A stretch of 64,000 nucleotides of DNA from positions 1,240,001 through 1,304,000 of the forward strand of contig NZ_OZ032150.1 in the NCBI RefSeq assembly GCF_964026445.1, written 5' to 3'. A program made the translations under genes and the position numbers. This DNA is from Rickettsia endosymbiont of Cantharis rufa (GTDB lineage: Bacteria > Pseudomonadota > Alphaproteobacteria > Rickettsiales > Rickettsiaceae). Below the pieces are notes generated by a model. That model saw only the letters and a list, made by a program, of their open reading frames with translations, made no database searches and was not told the DNA's origin. This document shows, piece after piece, positions 33,350 to 55,872 of this stretch. Position 1 is the stretch's first letter. Every line of letters begins with the position of its first letter.

Positions 33350-33369
33350 ATTTTATATATTTTTTTCTT

Positions 33370-33459
33370 GTCATACCGCGACTTGACCGCGGTATCCAGT
33401 AAAAGCATCAAACACTATCAGTTATTTTTTGGACCCCGTGGTTCAAGCCACGGAGTGAC
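33370..33459. repeat. Family b palindromic repeat (GTCATACCGCG type)
   Basis: Left arm GTCATACCGCGACTTGACCG, CGGTATCC and right arm GGTTCAAGCCACGGAGTGAC. It separates sdhA from the permease gene. This is the same family that enters the ELM1-like ORF and encloses the GIY-YIG gene. Confidence 0.75.
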
Positions 33460-35261: not shown

Positions 35262-35319
35262 TAAGTTAATTTTTTACTATTTAATTTCATTCGATGTTGT
35301 TGCTACGAACGTTGCTTAT

Positions 35320-35434
35320 GTCATTCCTGCGAAAGCAGGAATCCAGCATAAAGCGAAATAAATCGAGCTTTTAATTTCAAAAATTTGCTGTATTTATAAT
35401 TTTTTTCTGGATTCCTGCTTTCGCAGGAATGGCA
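35320..35434. repeat. Family a palindromic repeat
   Basis: GTCATTCCTGCGAAAGCAGG at the left, the AAAGCGAAATAAATCGAGCT centre, and GCAGGAATGGCAT at the right. It lies between sdhD and sdhA. Confidence 0.8.
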
Positions 35435-35450
35435 TAAAAAACACACAAGA

Positions 35451-35828
35451 TTACCCCCTATAAAACATCGCTACTACAAAAGCTACAATAGTCACAATGC
35501 AAAATAATTGCACTATTATAATCAATGTATTACGTAATTTGTGACAATTTATATAATCCTCAATCACTACACGCATACCAAGCATCGCATGATACAATGA
35601 AATAGCCACCGTAATTAACAATGCTACTGTATTAAAAGGCTTTTTGAGCTCCCACATAATGATATTTATATCATTGTTTTTGTTGGTTAACGTAAAATAT
35701 ATTAACCACACAGAGCATAAAGCTAATATAATACCCGTTATTCTTTGTAACAGCCAGTGATGAGAACCGCTTTTAGCGGTTCCCTGCCCCTTTGCTTTTA
35801 CGATTTCTGCTTTAAAATCATATACCAT
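35451..35828 (-). CDS. sdhD: Succinate dehydrogenase membrane anchor SdhD
   Basis: Hydrophobic anchor that helps bind heme b and ubiquinone. 125 residues, three membrane helices; HHWLLQRITGIILALCSVWL starts helix 1. HAMLGMRVVIEDYI carries the expected heme-ligand His and the quinone-site acidic/Tyr pair. It lies between the composite GIY-YIG element and sdhA. Confidence 0.93.
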   Translation of the reverse strand: MVYDFKAEIVKAKGQGTAKSGSHHWLLQRITGIILALCSVWLIYFTLTNKNNDINIIMWELKKPFNTVALLITVAISLYHAMLGMRVVIEDYINCHKLRNTLIIIVQLFCIVTIVAFVVAMFYRG

Positions 35829-35862
35829 TAATTTTCTCTAAACACATTTTTTCTGTTATGCT

Positions 35863-36264
35863 GTCATATCGCGACTTGATCGCGGTATCCAAAAAAACTT
35901 ATTATTAATAAAGCATAATTTATTTTAGAATATCTTCATACAAACCATGCCAACTTGGATTACTAGGGTTAATTAAATCTAATTTCCACTTCCTCTTGTA
36001 TACCTTTAAACGCTTTTCACACCCAATTGCAAGATTAGCATTATTAAATTGTTCAAAATAAACTAGTTTATCTATATCGTATTTTGTAGTAAAATCTTTT
36101 CTTATCTTATACTTATGTTGCCAAGTACGTTTTATAATATCTGAAGTAACGCCTACATTATAGAGTACCGTTACATTTATTAAAAAGTATATAAACATAA
36201 TATTCTTTCATTTTATTAAGTTATGAATTATTTTTTGGATCCCGCGATCAAGTCGCGGGATGAC
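35863..36264. mobile_element. Composite element: family b palindrome split around a GIY-YIG gene
   Basis: The left half (35863-35898, GTCATATCGCGACTTGATCG then GTATCCAAAAAAAC) and the right half (36231-36264, TTTTTTGGATCCCGCGATCA then GTCGCGGGATGAC) match the two arms of intact family b elements such as 42491-42588. In those, the arms are separated by only tens of bases. Here about 330 bases carrying the GIY-YIG ORF separate them. The whole 402-base unit lies between sdhC and sdhD and still begins GTCAT and ends ATGAC. Confidence 0.65.
35920..36198 (-). CDS. Small GIY-YIG nuclease domain protein
   Basis: 92 residues covering one GIY-YIG domain of the small stand-alone (UPF0213-like) kind. 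Family residues visible: Y4 in the first strand (IYFLI), Y13 and G16 of a modified YIG motif (LYNVGVTSD), R24, H28 and the metal-binding E61 (CEKRLK), then a WKLDLINPSNPSWHGLYE tail. The loop between the two tyrosines is shorter than usual and the YIG reads YNVG. It is enclosed by a split family b palindrome and lies inside the sdhC-sdhD interval on the same strand. Activity is untested. Confidence 0.8.
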   Translation of the reverse strand: MFIYFLINVTVLYNVGVTSDIIKRTWQHKYKIRKDFTTKYDIDKLVYFEQFNNANLAIGCEKRLKVYKRKWKLDLINPSNPSWHGLYEDILK

Positions 36265-36294
36265 AATAGAAAAACCAATATCTTTACAATATTT

Positions 36295-36693
36295 TCATAT
36301 CCATAGCAATATAGTTAATAATATAGAGCATACAACTACACACCAACCGGTGATATTAACGACTTTTATAAAAAAACCGTAACCGATATCCCAAAATAAA
36401 TGCCTGATGCCGTTACATAAATGATAAAACCAAGTGTAGCTAACGGCTACTAAGCATATTTTTATAATGCAACAATTAGCAAGCTGTAAATAATTATTGT
36501 CATATTTACTAAGAATCAACCACCAAGTCAAGATTGACACCGCAAAAAATAAAGCTACACCGGTCATACGATGCAAAATCGATAACGTAGAACTTATTTG
36601 TGGTTTGTATATGCTTAAGTGTGGCGAGGTCGGACGCCTATTATAAATTTCTTGTTTGGTTTTAGTCATGCTATTAATATTTTCCGTTGTCAT
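36295..36693 (-). CDS. sdhC: Succinate dehydrogenase cytochrome b556 subunit SdhC
   Basis: Membrane anchor and heme b protein of complex II. 132 residues: the N-terminal RPTSPHLSIYKPQISSTLS signature (20-38), then helix 1 with the HRMTGV motif, and HLCNGIRHLFWDIGYG with the heme-ligand His. First gene of the sdhC-sdhD-sdhA series. Confidence 0.95.
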   Translation of the reverse strand: MTTENINSMTKTKQEIYNRRPTSPHLSIYKPQISSTLSILHRMTGVALFFAVSILTWWLILSKYDNNYLQLANCCIIKICLVAVSYTWFYHLCNGIRHLFWDIGYGFFIKVVNITGWCVVVCSILLTILLWI

Positions 36694-36720
36694 CTCGTGG
36701 CTGGTCCTAGCTCGTTTATA

Positions 36721-36817
36721 TCATTCCCGCGTAGGCAGGAATCCAACGTAAAGCGAGATAAATCGAGCTCTTTAAAAAAGCTTTAAGGCACTGGATTCCC
36801 ACCTACGCGGGAATGAC
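36721..36817. repeat. Family a palindromic repeat entering the trhO 3' end
   Basis: Left arm TCATTCCCGCGTAGGCAGGA, the AAAGCGAGATAAATCGAGCT centre and right arm CCTACGCGGGAATGAC. Bases 36783-36817 are read as the last codons and stop of trhO. Confidence 0.8.
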
Positions 36818-37547
36818 AAAATCCCTCAGCCGGCGATAAATCATCCGCCACTGCTCTTCTATCATCAAAGACAAAACACTCGCCTTGCCATAAATTATTC
36901 TTGTTTTGTGTATCTTCTAAATATTGCAATATACCACCTTTTAGATGATACACCTCTTCATAACCTATGCTTTTAAGTAAGCTGGTGGATTTTTCACACC
37001 TGATACCACCCGTACAAACCATAGCAATTTTCTTACCTCTAAGTAATTCTTGATTCTGCTGAACCCAAGCCGGAAACTGTTTAAATGTCTTGGTATTAGG
37101 ATTAATTGCTGATTTAAATGTACCGACTTCTACTTCATAATCATTTCGAGTATCTATTACTATAACATTTTGTTTTGTGATAAATTCATCCCAATCTTTC
37201 GGCTCTATGTATTCGCCTTTAAACACATCAACATTTAAATCATCAACATTCATCGCTACAATTTCTCTCTTAAGTCTGACTTTTAACTTATAAAAAGGAT
37301 GAACATCACTATAATTTATTTTAACGTTAACATCTTTGGGATTAGTTAGTTTTATTAGTTCTTCGAGTACAAGATTTACATTTTCATATAAGCCTGAAAA
37401 AGAACCGTTAAAACCTTCATTAGCTAATAAAATAGTACCTCTGACATATTTTTTTTTACCAATAAGCAAAATCTTCGGTATCAAATTCGTCGGCTCTTCT
37501 ATATTAACAAAGCTATATGCACTTAAAATTGCTATTTTTTCACTCAT
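36783..37547 (-). CDS. trhO: tRNA uridine(34) hydroxylase, rhodanese-type (TrhO/YceA)
   Basis: Rhodanese-fold enzyme of the UPF0176/TrhO family, which hydroxylates U34 of tRNA as a step to 5-carboxymethoxy or methoxy uridine. The catalytic loop reads [10 protein letters not shown], with Cys178 and Cys184. I place the start at the ATG at 37547 ([13 protein letters not shown]); the open frame runs 40 codons further upstream, but only through a family c repeat. The last dozen residues ([12 protein letters not shown]) are encoded by the family a repeat at 36721-36817, so the natural tail has been replaced. The core is complete. Confidence 0.9.
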
Positions 37548-42383: not shown

Positions 42384-43591
42384 TGAAAATATACGTATTG
42401 GCAGATGATAGAACAGGAAACACACATCAGGCTATTGCACTTGCTGAAAAATTAACGGCATTGTTGCATAACTCGGAAAACCCACTCGGTGTCATACCGT
42501 GGCTTGACCACGGTATCCAAAAAATAACTAAAAATACTAATAATATTAGTATTTTTAGCTGGATCCCGCGGTCAAGTCGCGGGATGACAACTGAAGAATC
42601 AAGTCATACAACAGCACCAAAATTAGCTACAGATTACACTTTAATTAAACTTCAATATAATTGCTTAGCTAAATTACCGAATTTTTTACTAAAATATTAT
42701 CCTATTCATATAAAAAGTGAATTATTACAGGATATCATAGCAGAACCTTTACCTGATATAATAATAACTGCCGGAAGAAGAACAGCAGTTTTAGCATTTT
42801 ATTTAAAAAAGAAACTCAAAAAGGATATCAATTTAATACAAATAATGCAGCCCTCCTTGCCTTATGACGCATTTGCTACCGTTATTCTACCTTATCATGA
42901 TTTGAGTAATAACCAGAATGTCATCCCGTGGCTTGACCACGGTATCCAAAAAAAAATTAAAGAGGACTGGATTCCGCGATCAAGTCGCGGAATGACAATC
43001 CCCATCAGCGGAGCTATTAACAACGTAACCGCTAAATTTACTGCCGCAAGTCTAGAACTACACAAGCATTATCCTAATCTTAAACAGTTTATCGCAGTGA
43101 TGATCGGTGGTAATAATAAAAAATTCAATTTTAACGGAGATGAGGCAGTTTTATTTTCTTCATTATTAAATAAAATATATACTAATCAAAAAATACCGTT
43201 TTTCATTACTTTCAGTAGACGTACACCACAAGCCGTAAAATCTATTATTAAAAATAACATGCCGGTTTCTGTAATTATTTATGACCCGAATGAAGACACA
43301 GGATATAATCCCTATATAGCTATGCTTGCTAATGCGAAATATATAATCTCTACAGCCGACTCGATTTCAATGTGCAGTGAAGCGGCTTCAAGCGGTAAAC
43401 CTCTTTATATATTCTGCCCACCAAACTTTAATTCCTCAAAGCATAAAATTTTTATAAAGCAATTAGTGGAGCAGAAAATAGCAAGAATTTTTGATGAGTC
43501 AGTAACGATGCTGGGGGAATATAACTATAAACCTTTAAATGAAGCAGAAAGAGTAGCTGAAATTATTAAATCTTTAGTCAAAAGCTGGTAA
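42380..43591 (+). CDS. ELM1-family protein with two in-frame palindromic repeats
   Basis: The core resembles the mitochondrial-fission-ELM1/DUF1022 family (KIYVLADDRTGNTHQAIALA at the start; PDIIITAGRRTA; QIMQPSLPYDAF; ISTADSISMCSEAASSGKP; a glycosyltransferase-B-like layout). The bacterial function is not known. Two stretches are foreign: residues about 38-70 and 180-206 both contain VIPWLDHGIQ and WIPRSSRGMT and are translated from family b palindromic repeats at 42491-42588 and 42920-42996. The frame is kept across both, giving 403 residues. It starts inside the Mrp stop codon. The IS1 relic follows 27 bases later. Confidence 0.8.
   Translation: MMKIYVLADDRTGNTHQAIALAEKLTALLHNSENPLGVIPWLDHGIQKITKNTNNISIFSWIPRSSRGMTTEESSHTTAPKLATDYTLIKLQYNCLAKLPNFLLKYYPIHIKSELLQDIIAEPLPDIIITAGRRTAVLAFYLKKKLKKDINLIQIMQPSLPYDAFATVILPYHDLSNNQNVIPWLDHGIQKKIKEDWIPRSSRGMTIPISGAINNVTAKFTAASLELHKHYPNLKQFIAVMIGGNNKKFNFNGDEAVLFSSLLNKIYTNQKIPFFITFSRRTPQAVKSIIKNNMPVSVIIYDPNEDTGYNPYIAMLANAKYIISTADSISMCSEAASSGKPLYIFCPPNFNSSKHKIFIKQLVEQKIARIFDESVTMLGEYNYKPLNEAERVAEIIKSLVKSW
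42491..42588. repeat. Family b palindromic repeat inside coding sequence (1)
   Basis: 98 bases from GTCATACCGTGGCTTGACCA to CAAGTCGCGGGATGAC, with a central AATACTAATAATATTAGTAT palindrome. Read in frame as part of the ELM1-like protein. Confidence 0.85.
42920..42996. repeat. Family b palindromic repeat inside coding sequence (2)
   Basis: 77 bases from GTCATCCCGTGGCTTGACCA to CAAGTCGCGGAATGAC. It has the same frame and orientation as copy 1 but is 21 bases (7 codons) shorter, lacking the central palindrome. Confidence 0.85.
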
Positions 43592-48316: not shown

Positions 48317-48342
48317 AATATATGTCTTTTTTTATGGATTAA

Positions 48343-48436
48343 TGTCATTCCTGCGAAAGCGGGAATCTAGTAAAATATATAATTATTGTACTAACATTAA
48401 GGTTATTTTATGGATTCCTGCTTTCGCAGGAATGAC
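48343..48436. repeat. Family a palindromic repeat
   Basis: GTCATTCCTGCGAAAGCGGG at the left and TTTCGCAGGAATGAC at the right, between nuoF and lepB. Confidence 0.8.
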
Positions 48437-48475
48437 ATCTTAAACGTTCATATAGCACTGGACCTCAAGCCACAC

Positions 48476-49729: not shown

Positions 49730-49763
49730 ACACTCTCTTAGAAATTACGGTATGTACGTTTAT

Positions 49764-49835
49764 GTCATTCCCGCGGAGGCGAGAATCCAGAAAAAACATT
49801 CGAAAGGCTGGATTCCCGCCTCCGCGGGAATGGCA
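49764..49835. repeat. Family a palindromic repeat, short form
   Basis: GTCATTCCCGCGGAGGCGAG at the left and CTCCGCGGGAATGGCAT at the right, 72 bases, lacking the central block. It is placed between secF and nuoF. Confidence 0.75.
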
Positions 49836-49846
49836 TATAACACTCT

Positions 49847-50764: not shown

Positions 50765-50803
50765 TATTACTATTTCGTTGAATGAAAGTTATATACTACT
50801 TGT

Positions 50804-50907
50804 ACTTCAAGAACCCTCATTTTATTTTGAGAGGTGAACACCCACAGCCTATACTTAATAGGTGAGGATGCAAATCCTTGATAAAATGAAAGAACAATTC
50901 TTGAAAT
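50804..50907. repeat. Palindromic repeat overlapping the gapR promoter
   Basis: ACTTCAAGAA at 50804 and TTCTTGAAAT ending 50907, with CATTTTATTTTGAG and TGATAAAATGAA inside, form inverted arms. The core CCTATACTTAATAGGTGAGG resembles family d cores. Confidence 0.6.
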
Positions 50908-50929
50908 ACAGGCAGTATATTTGTATTAT
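50901..50929 (+). promoter_or_regulatory. Candidate gapR promoter, -35 box inside a repeat arm
   Basis: TTGAAA at 50901-50906, spacer of exactly 17, TATTAT at 50924-50929. The -35 hexamer is part of the right arm of the repeat at 50804-50907. The ATG is at 50962. Confidence 0.5.
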
Positions 50930-51219: not shown

Positions 51220-51355
51220 GCCATTCCCACGAAAGCGGGAATCTAGAATTCTCCTTGTCATCCCGTGGCTTGACCGCGGAATCCAGAAAAACAATAAGAG
51301 ATACTGATGACTTTAGTATTTTAAACTGGATCCCGTGATCAAGTCGCGGAATGGC
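51220..51355. repeat. Family a arm followed by family b repeat
   Basis: 51220-51246 is one family a arm (GCCATTCCCACGAAAGCGGG). 51257-51355 is a full family b element (GTCATCCCGTGGCTTGACCG to AAGTCGCGGAATGGC). They fill the gap between the convergent gapR and rplS. Confidence 0.7.
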
Positions 51356-51416
51356 AGCAGTGAAATCAATCCACGCAATAATGCTGAGCTAGGAATGACG
51401 TTAGCTGCGAATATTC

Positions 51417-55678: not shown

Positions 55679-55872
55679 TCATCCCGTGGCTTGTCCTCTA
55701 GTAGCGGACAATTTTTACTTTATGTCATTCCTAGCTAAAAGCGGGAATCCAGCCTAAAGCGAGATAAATCGAGCTTTTAATTTTAAAAATTTGCTATATT
55801 GATATTTTTTTCTGGATTCCCGCTTTCGCGGGAATGACATAAGAGTCATGCAACGCCGGACAAGTGGCTAGT
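55679..55872. repeat. Family a repeat nested in a broken palindrome
   Basis: 55724-55838 is a full family a element (GTCATTCCTAGCTAAAAGCG to CGCGGGAATGAC). Outside it, CGTGGCTTGTCC (55685-55696) and GGACAAGTGGCTAG (about 55858-55871) mirror each other, which suggests insertion into an older palindrome that starts like family b. Confidence 0.6.

What the first reader, a model, noticed from the sequence alone, without database searches (positions are those of the whole stretch)
35863..36264. GIY-YIG nuclease gene sitting inside a split palindromic repeat
The flanks of the small GIY-YIG ORF are the left and right arms of one family b palindrome, in correct order and orientation, still bounded by GTCAT and ATGAC. 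In intact copies in this window (33370-33459, 42491-42588, 42920-42996, 51257-51355) the arms are tens of bases apart; here about 330 bases with the ORF separate them. This looks like an autonomous form of an otherwise non-coding element, with the nuclease as a possible mobility or homing factor. Rickettsia palindromic elements spread by an unknown mechanism, so a nuclease-carrying version would be a direct lead. The insertion lies between sdhC and sdhD without breaking either gene.
Basis: partly seen in the sequence, partly recalled or inferred. Interest (0 to 1): 0.78.

Follow-up and report, generated by a model that had tools for sequence, protein, structure and literature searches.

The report
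Nuclease-carrying palindromic mobile element in Rickettsia
Some of the short palindromic repeats scattered through Rickettsia genomes carry a small DNA-cutting enzyme gene between two repeat copies, as one mobile unit, which gives a concrete candidate for how these repeats spread; the copy in this window is itself broken.

Summary
In detail: window 35862-36265 is a broken small GIY-YIG gene between two inverted hairpin repeats, between intact sdhC and sdhD. The hairpins have the published anatomy of CGTC-tagged REPs (9-bp stem, 5-nt loop, TGTC tag, CCA tail), the superfamily that includes RPE-4 and RPE-6, for which no dedicated transposase had been found (PMC3733652).

It is not a one-off. Of 62 Rickettsia loci examined, 59 have at least one typed hairpin arm; where both arms were typed, 46 of 48 match. 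Four arm types follow the nuclease tree with 3 changes, the minimum (shuffles 28.5). Two copies in this genome are 348/349 identical from arm to arm and unrelated immediately outside, so nuclease plus arms is one unit. Across 23 genomes the sdhC-sdhD spacer holds three nuclease types, nuclease-free pairs, another gene or almost nothing. Part of the family elsewhere in Pseudomonadota has such arms too.

Best reading: a "REPtron" whose enzyme is a GIY-YIG nuclease instead of an HUH transposase, probably acting on single-stranded hairpins like the Neisseria Ssn nucleases (recalled). Cutting and transposition were not tested; no target-site duplication was found for the unit.

The parts
35862..36265 (-). 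nuclease-carrying unit, arm to arm (read on the minus strand: arm, leader, GIY-YIG gene, arm)
   Evidence: that the unit ends at the arms is inferred from other copies
35862..35891 (+). arm downstream of the gene: hairpin repeat TGTC-9 bp stem/5-nt loop-CCA
36236..36265 (-). arm upstream of the gene: same hairpin repeat, inverted
35920..36198 (-). GIY-YIG ORF, frame lesion near the YIG motif (broken copy)
36295..36693 (-). sdhC-like ORF, co-directional, uninterrupted
35451..35828 (-). sdhD-like ORF, co-directional, uninterrupted
33369..33459 (.). nuclease-free pair of the CTTGA-loop type, right arm degenerate
42490..42589 (.). nuclease-free pair of the CTTGA-loop type (two hairpin subtypes)
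42919..42997 (.). nuclease-free pair of the CTTGA-loop type
51256..51356 (.). nuclease-free pair of the CTTGA-loop type
35317..35435 (.). nuclease-free pair of type a (TTCCTGC..GCAGGAA) with interior TAAAGCGAAATAAATCGAGCTTTTAAT
36718..36819 (.). nuclease-free pair of type a
48341..48439 (.). nuclease-free pair of type a
49762..49836 (.). nuclease-free pair of type a, shared with the same-species genome G058

Best explanation
The window carries a decayed copy of a small mobile element made of a GIY-YIG nuclease gene between two inverted, outward-tagged CGTC-type REP hairpins. The nuclease and its arm type form a matched pair. SHOWN by sequence: the unit has sharp ends at the arms, occurs at many sites, and in Rickettsia nuclease lineage predicts arm type. 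INFERRED: the nuclease recognises its own hairpin, probably when the DNA is single-stranded (lagging strand, repair, uptake), and cuts beside the stem; the ends so made let the unit, or a nuclease-free pair of the same type, be copied elsewhere with host repair. Nuclease-free pairs (RPE-4/RPE-6 like) would then be non-autonomous passengers. Here the gene points the same way as sdhC and sdhD, so it may be read from the operon transcript.
For: Typed hairpins at 59 of 62 Rickettsia loci (both sides 48, one side 11), same type on both sides in 46 of 48. Arm type against nuclease tree: 3 changes for 4 types, minimum 3, shuffled mean 28.5, 0 of 200 as low (54 of 62 rows used). The 62 loci fall in 20 site clusters by any shared flank or 26 by both; with the two conflicting loci counted by their downstream arm, type a is at 10 clusters, b2 at 7, c at 5, b1 at 3. 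Two copies in this genome: 348 of 349 identical arm to arm, adjacent 100 nt outside 30 and 24 identical; a second same-genome pair (L058/L076 in G003) 337 of 357 columns, outside 37 and 27. Strict hairpins with tags outward on both sides: 36 of 81 same-order loci, 18 of 56 class/phylum loci picked by protein score alone, 6 of 12 named records of the plasmid collection, against 0 of 40 weaker GIY-YIG genes and 0 of 212 random window stretches. Purifying selection on uninterrupted copies, median dN/dS 0.19 to 0.27 in four sets, with the presumed catalytic positions conserved in 29 aligned relatives. Many arms per genome: 29, 58 and 253 of three types here, 0 for the reversed pattern in all 23 genomes. 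Y1 (HUH) transposases have no match in 13 of 23 genomes, this one included.
Against: No biochemical or transposition evidence. No target-site duplication or clean empty site was found for a nuclease-carrying unit. With the strict tag-and-hairpin detector within 200 nt, only 32 of the 62 Rickettsia loci have both sides and 14 have neither. Arm number follows nuclease presence for type b2 (p 0.003 over 22 genomes) but not clearly for b1 (p 0.064) or a (p 0.17), without correction for kinship (which leaves out G058, a genome whose nucleases were not searched and which one search had wrongly counted). Outside Rickettsia an outward arm is missing on both sides at 23 of 56 loci, and 5 of 56 have both arms with tags inward; in one genome with many copies (G181) 1 of 10 has both strict outward arms and 5 of 10 have no such hairpin within 200 nt. 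A GIY-YIG nuclease has no strand-transfer activity known to me, so insertion needs host enzymes. 35 of 62 Rickettsia copies, the window's included, are broken or partial.
Confidence: 0.68

Rival explanations
1. Homing rather than transposition: the nuclease cuts a REP pair of its own type at another site, and repair from the nuclease-carrying copy converts a nuclease-free pair into a carrying one.
For: Nuclease-free and nuclease-carrying b2-like pairs occur in the same sdhC-sdhD spacer in different species (L131, L133 against L129). Leaders of two b2 nuclease units (L051, L090) share the interior motif TAAAGCGAGATAAA(T/G)CGAGCTTTTAAT with nuclease-free pairs.
Against: No genome of the 23 shows a nuclease-free b1 pair at sdhC-sdhD, where four carry the b1 nuclease. 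The same-genome pair L032/L033 diverges directly outside the arms, as expected for insertion as well as for conversion of two old pairs, so it does not decide.
Confidence: 0.25
2. Another transposase (HUH/Y1, like RAYTs) moves the REPs and the nuclease gene is a passenger or a regulator.
For: GTAG-type REPs are paired with Y1 transposases (PMC3733652, abstract and passages; PMC8266576, passages). Y1 genes are very numerous in two Rickettsia genomes (89 and 121 matches).
Against: 13 of 23 genomes, this one and the one with most b2 arms (G015, 321) among them, have no Y1 match. The 2013 survey found no tyrosine transposase gene flanked by CGTC repeats and only a few fortuitous associations with other classes. 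Lock-step of nuclease lineage and arm type is not expected of a passenger. Transposases of other families were not searched here.
Confidence: 0.12
3. A host-serving nuclease that uses the repeats as marks (for example to limit or channel DNA uptake and recombination, as recalled for Ssn of Neisseria); mobility is incidental.
For: A Neisseria gonorrhoeae homologue lies among dRS3-type repeats (L144); recalled work says that Ssn acts in natural transformation. Purifying selection.
Against: Presence at each site is patchy (7 of 23 at sdhC-sdhD), copies sit at many sites and 35 of 62 are broken or partial, the pattern of a selfish element. Obligate intracellular Rickettsia have no obvious use for uptake control.
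Confidence: 0.15
4. Chance: REPs are so common that two landed around an ordinary gene.
For: About 340 arms of three types in this 1.46-Mb genome.
Against: 0 of 212 random stretches and 0 of 40 weaker GIY-YIG genes are so enclosed; arm types match on both sides and follow the nuclease tree.
Confidence: 0.01

Closest known systems
CGTC-tagged REPs, including RPE-4, RPE-6 and dRS3 (Di Nocera 2013, PMC3733652; abstract, sections 6 and 14 and passages seen)
   Same: Tag TGTC/CGTC, stem of 9 bp beginning with AT, 5-nt loop, CCA tail, inverted pairs, many copies
   Different: [quoted passage not shown] here they enclose, and in Rickettsia co-vary with, a GIY-YIG nuclease
Ssn, site-specific single-strand GIY-YIG nucleases (Neisseria and many others; recalled, paper not held or found)
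   Same: Small stand-alone GIY-YIG protein with cognate repeats in many copies; a Neisseria homologue in dRS3-type repeats was found here
   Different: As far as I recall described as a nuclease shaping transformation, not as the enzyme of a discrete mobile unit with matched terminal arms; I could not check this
REPtrons / RAYT (TnpA-REP) with REPINs (PMC8266576 seen as passages; PMC3116915 and PMC2817692 seen in a search listing only)
   Same: Layout: enzyme gene between inverted REPs, with enzyme-free pairs elsewhere
   Different: Enzyme is GIY-YIG, not an HUH tyrosine transposase; TnpA-REP genes are described as resembling housekeeping genes in copy number and duplication rate, whereas these nucleases have up to ten strong matches in one genome and decay often
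MITE / insertion sequence pairs
   Same: Enzyme-free copies share ends with the coding form
   Different: The enzyme is not a transposase of a known class, and no target-site duplication was found for the unit

Membership tests
CGTC-REP superfamily | Unpaired CGTC/TGTC tag, 8-9 bp stem starting AT, 4-5 nt loop, CCA tail | tested here: met
   against PMC3733652 section 6
CGTC-REP superfamily | High copy number | tested here: met
   29, 58 and 253 places in this genome for three arm patterns, 0 for the reversed patterns
CGTC-REP superfamily | Mostly 'HH' dimers in the paper's sense | tested here: inconclusive
   inverted pairs with tags outermost were found; I did not see how the paper defines head and tail
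RPE-4 / RPE-6 of R. conorii | Sequence match with the published family consensus | not tested
   consensus sequences are in a figure not held; the equivalence CGTC-4 = RPE-4 and CGTC-1 = RPE-6 is taken from PMC3733652
GIY-YIG nucleases (PF01541) | Profile match above curated cut-off | tested here: met
   window copy 24.7 bits (cut-off 22.6); four relatives 43-61 bits
GIY-YIG nucleases (PF01541) | Catalytic Tyr, Tyr, Arg, Glu, Asn positions | tested here: not met
   met in 29 aligned relatives (Y7, Y18, E65, N84 invariant, R28 nearly; which residues are catalytic is recalled); the window copy lacks the GIY part
Ssn nucleases | Site-specific cleavage of single-stranded DNA at the cognate repeat | not testable with these tools
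   needs protein; definition recalled
Ssn nucleases | Homologous to the Neisseria protein and associated with its repeats | tested here: inconclusive
   44% identity over 94% of the query to an N. gonorrhoeae locus, with CGTC-type hairpins outward about 180 nt upstream and 160 nt downstream; that this locus is Ssn itself is recalled, not shown
REPtron (RAYT) | HUH/Y1 transposase | tested here: not met
   protein is GIY-YIG; no Y1 match in this genome
Transposable element | Discrete unit at several sites in one genome | tested here: met
Transposable element | Target-site duplication or clean empty site | tested here: inconclusive

The most novel reading that the evidence does not exclude
GIY-YIG nucleases are the long-missing mobilising enzymes of CGTC-type REPs across bacteria (RPE-4/RPE-6 of Rickettsia, dRS3 of Neisseria and others): a class of transposable element, 'GIY-YIG REPtrons', that moves by hairpin-directed single-strand cutting, with a sister lineage doing the same for the TCCTGAG..CTTGTCGAAGGA palindromes.
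Probability: 0.5. Interest if true: 0.88.

Novelty: new variant of a known kind. Interest (0 to 1): 0.74.

Why it matters
The 2013 survey that defined CGTC-type REPs, found in five phyla, concluded that they apparently lack a dedicated transposase; how Rickettsia palindromic elements spread is, by the finding and my own knowledge, likewise open. A nuclease that is carried between matched arms, and whose lineage predicts the arm type, makes the question testable with one protein and one hairpin oligonucleotide. It would also extend REP-associated mobility from HUH enzymes to a second, unrelated catalytic fold.

Tried and rejected
Rejected: chance enclosure; two unrelated later insertions of the arms (arm types match in 46 of 48 and unit boundaries coincide with the arms in the pairs compared); a Y1 transposase as necessary mover; a known structured RNA (Rfam over the window at gathering threshold gave only an rpsL leader and a tRNA).

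Led nowhere: target-site duplications for the nuclease unit; a clean empty site for it at sdhC-sdhD, because the spacer differs in nearly every genome; one protein scan of named genomes gave only 3 loci; four proteins against NCBIfam gave one hit, below its cut-off, for the Mesonia protein; the solved structures matched by the family profile at E <= 0.001 are two UPF0213 proteins; three of the five stretches folded were badly chosen and say nothing. Structure prediction and the large protein search were not used.

Selections: of the matches listed, 80 places were fetched, chosen mainly by score; those left out were mostly weaker matches, second fragments or further copies, so nuclease counts per genome are incomplete. 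The class/phylum set is the best-scoring loci that two searches returned, 57 less one of this genome. The 40 weaker GIY-YIG genes were picked by me from the lower part of the same lists. In the looser inverted-repeat test with dinucleotide shuffles 37 of 56 class/phylum loci and 16 of those 40 weaker genes reached p 0.01: a sister group has another palindrome, which is why I went on to the tag-based test. The printed output was cut in the middle, so its totals for the plasmid records were not seen and are not used; its script ended with an error while saving, after printing.

Full report
WHAT IS THERE. In the window, 35862-35891 and 36236-36265 are two inverted copies of one 30-nt hairpin repeat; between them lies the minus-strand ORF 35920-36198. 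It matches the GIY-YIG catalytic domain (PF01541, E 2.9e-5). Neighbours are uninterrupted sdhC-like (36295-36693) and sdhD-like (35451-35828) ORFs, all on the minus strand. Folded alone as DNA, each arm forms a 9-bp stem with a 5-nt loop, a 4-nt unpaired TGTC tag and a 3-nt CCA tail. That is the anatomy given for CGTC-tagged REPs, whose families 1 and 4 correspond to RPE-6 and RPE-4 of R. conorii and, for family 1, to dRS3 of Neisseria (PMC3733652, section 6). That the window belongs to a Rickettsia is inferred: the closest named loci are a Rickettsia endosymbiont and R. tamurae, and the Rfam rpsL_ricks leader is present.

THE WINDOW COPY IS BROKEN. Against the same-species genome G058, whose copy is uninterrupted (96 aa), the window copy has a frame lesion in the stretch for the YIG motif; the listed ORF begins out of frame and lacks the GIY part. 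By a simple test of length and motifs, 27 of 62 Rickettsia copies are uninterrupted and 35 are broken or partial. Uninterrupted copies are under purifying selection: median dN/dS 0.20, 0.27, 0.21 and 0.19 in four sets (15, 3, 21 and 21 pairs of chosen copies).

OTHER COPIES. The window protein has relatives in 36 of 58 related genomes. I fetched 80 of those places. A first inverted-repeat test across the gene was above the 99% level of mononucleotide shuffles in 67 of 83 loci. Both sides were typed in 48, one in 11, none in 3; of the 48, 46 have the same type on both sides. These patterns do not ask for the tag; with the strict tag-and-hairpin detector within 200 nt, 32 of 62 have both sides, 16 one and 14 neither. 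In several type a units the reading frame ends inside the arm (e.g. the C-terminus GFPPTRE of L062).

LOCK-STEP. On a tree of 54 of these nucleases (dropped: 3 without arm, 2 with conflicting arms, 3 too short) the four arm types need 3 changes, the least possible; shuffled labels need 28.5 on average and none of 200 reached 3. The alignment is short and 29 of 50 inner branches are unresolved. Shared descent at one site adds to such clustering, but the 62 loci fall into at least 20 sites, with type a at 10, b2 at 7, c at 5 and b1 at 3. Different types occur in the same genome (this one has a, b1 and c).

THE UNIT AND ITS ENDS. Two copies in this genome, near 927 and 999 kb (L032, L033; both broken), are identical at 348 of 349 positions from ATGTCAT to ATGACAT, while the adjacent 100 nt outside are 30 and 24 identical, i.e. 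unrelated. A pair in G003 (L058, L076) gives 337 of 357 columns inside and 37 and 27 outside; a pair of different species (L045, L077) 347 of 378 and 25 and 30. These are the three pairs at different sites that I compared; a fourth (L043, L046) shares its site. So arms plus gene move or are copied as one piece.

THE sdhC-sdhD SPACER. In all 23 genomes of the genus searched (this one included) sdhC was found, and sdhD beside it. The spacer holds a nuclease with arms in 7: b1 type in 4 (window, G058, G013, G002), a type in 2 (G005, G020), b2 type in 1 (G019). It holds a c-type pair or its remains in 5, a b2-like pair in 2, a nucleotidyltransferase-like gene or its remains in 5 (Pfam Polbeta E 8e-8 for the one tested, G003), other sequence in 2, and 4 nt in 2 (sorted by my reading). 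Another spacer, after a glutaredoxin-like gene, holds a type nucleases in some species and b1 nucleases in others; a third, between nuoC- and nuoD-like genes, holds c nucleases in five genomes (gene names are my reading).

BEYOND RICKETTSIA. A profile of 29 relatives matches 58 of 142 genomes of the class and 162 of 299 genomes drawn from the phylum at E <= 0.001 (these include weak matches to other GIY-YIG proteins, and the two sets overlap). With a strict hairpin detector (tag outermost on both sides within 300 nt), both arms were found at 36 of 81 same-order loci, 18 of 56 loci chosen by protein score only, and 6 of 12 named records of the plasmid collection (12 of the 33 records with a match were looked at). 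The same test gave 0 of 40 weaker GIY-YIG genes and 0 of 212 random stretches of the window (Fisher 2e-5 for 18/56 against 0/40). Among the 56, 15 more had one outward arm and 23 none; 5 had both arms inward. Counting either orientation within 200 nt, 21 of 56 have both sides and 14 one, against 6 of 107 background stretches farther out. In G181, with ten copies looked at, only 1 has both strict arms, so the rule is not universal or the detector misses variants. A Neisseria gonorrhoeae homologue (44% identity) lies among CGTC-type hairpins, the nearest outward ones about 180 nt upstream and 160 nt downstream. A Bacteroidota copy (Mesonia, L113) has CGTCA-tagged inverted repeats, scoring above the 99% level of shuffles but not above their maximum.

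COPY NUMBER. Three arm patterns occur 29 (b1), 58 (b2) and 253 (a) times in this genome; the reversed patterns occur 0 times in all 23. Over 22 genomes (G058 left out, as its nucleases were not searched), those with a typed b2 nuclease have more b2 arms (median 121 in 8 genomes against 31 in 14, one-sided p 0.003). For b1 it is 19 (10 genomes) against 7.5 (12), p 0.064, and for a 102 (13) against 85 (9), p 0.17 (kinship not corrected, nuclease lists incomplete). The a and b1 results do not bear out a simple rule that arms need a resident nuclease; nuclease loss after spread would also give them.

MECHANISM. Shown: a unit with two arms, at many sites, with nuclease lineage and arm type linked in Rickettsia. 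Inferred: recognition and cutting of the hairpin. By recall, Ssn, a GIY-YIG family first worked out in Neisseria meningitidis, cuts single-stranded DNA at a repeated site; that paper was not held or found, so I could not check how much of the present link it states. The layout equals that of REPtrons, where an HUH enzyme binds the REP hairpin as single strand (PMC8266576, passages). No Y1 transposase match was found in 13 of 23 Rickettsia genomes, this one included; other transposase families were not searched. Insertion would need host repair, as a GIY-YIG enzyme is only known to me to cut. Whether the unit inserts anew or homes into existing pairs is open.

NOVELTY. [quoted passage not shown] Searches of the held library for GIY-YIG with Rickettsia and palindromic, with inverted repeats and transposition, with Neisseria/dRS3, with CGTC-REP or palindromic repeats, and with extragenic palindromes, and for Rickettsia palindromic elements with mobility and nuclease, listed no paper that I recognised as making this link. 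I judged from titles and abstract starts of at most 20 papers each, and the library misses most subscription journals. A 2025 REP survey has no word beginning with nuclease, RAYT or transposase (PMC12306157, term search only). Given the recalled Ssn work I rate this a new variant of a known kind.

Noticed in passing
L206-L245 (weaker GIY-YIG genes of the class and phylum): 16 of 40 weaker GIY-YIG genes are enclosed by significant inverted repeats, mostly of another palindrome, TCATCCTGAG..CTTGTCGAAGGATGA (two of the 16 also hold a loose GTCA tag); none has the CGTC-type arms by the strict test. A sister nuclease-repeat pairing is likely.
   Followed up: partly
window 50795-50916: About 120-nt insertion present here and in G003 but absent in G058, G001 and G017; the relatives' hits overlap by 5 nt at the joint, suggesting a short target duplication; a different repeat family.
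   Followed up: partly
window 42459-42600: The nuclease-free pair 42490-42589 lies in a larger insertion, in what looks like a coding stretch, present here and in G058, absent in G001, G003 and G017; AAAATTAAC / AAAATTAGC on the two sides may be a target duplication.
   Followed up: partly
L116, L118, L119, L120, L130, L129 (sdhC-sdhD spacer): A nucleotidyltransferase-like gene (Pfam Polbeta for L118) or its remains sits in the spacer in several Rickettsia; a b2 nuclease unit in L129 lies within such remains.
   Followed up: partly
L076 flanks: This unit sits in the middle of another palindrome (GTACGAATGTTCAG / CTGAACGTTCGTAC), so units may prefer or build nested hairpins.
   Followed up: no
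leaders of L051 and L090; short pairs at window 35317-35435, 36718-36819, 55722-55841 and L248, L254, L261: A shared interior motif close to TAAAGCGAGATAAATCGAGCTTTTAAT next to the arm in nuclease-free pairs of types a and b and in two b2 nuclease units.
   Followed up: partly
L137: A GIY-YIG relative without CGTC-type arms by the strict test lies between a type IIL restriction enzyme gene and drmA of DISARM on a Planktothrix plasmid.
   Followed up: no
G020 and G002: 89 and 121 Y1 transposase matches in single Rickettsia genomes.
   Followed up: no
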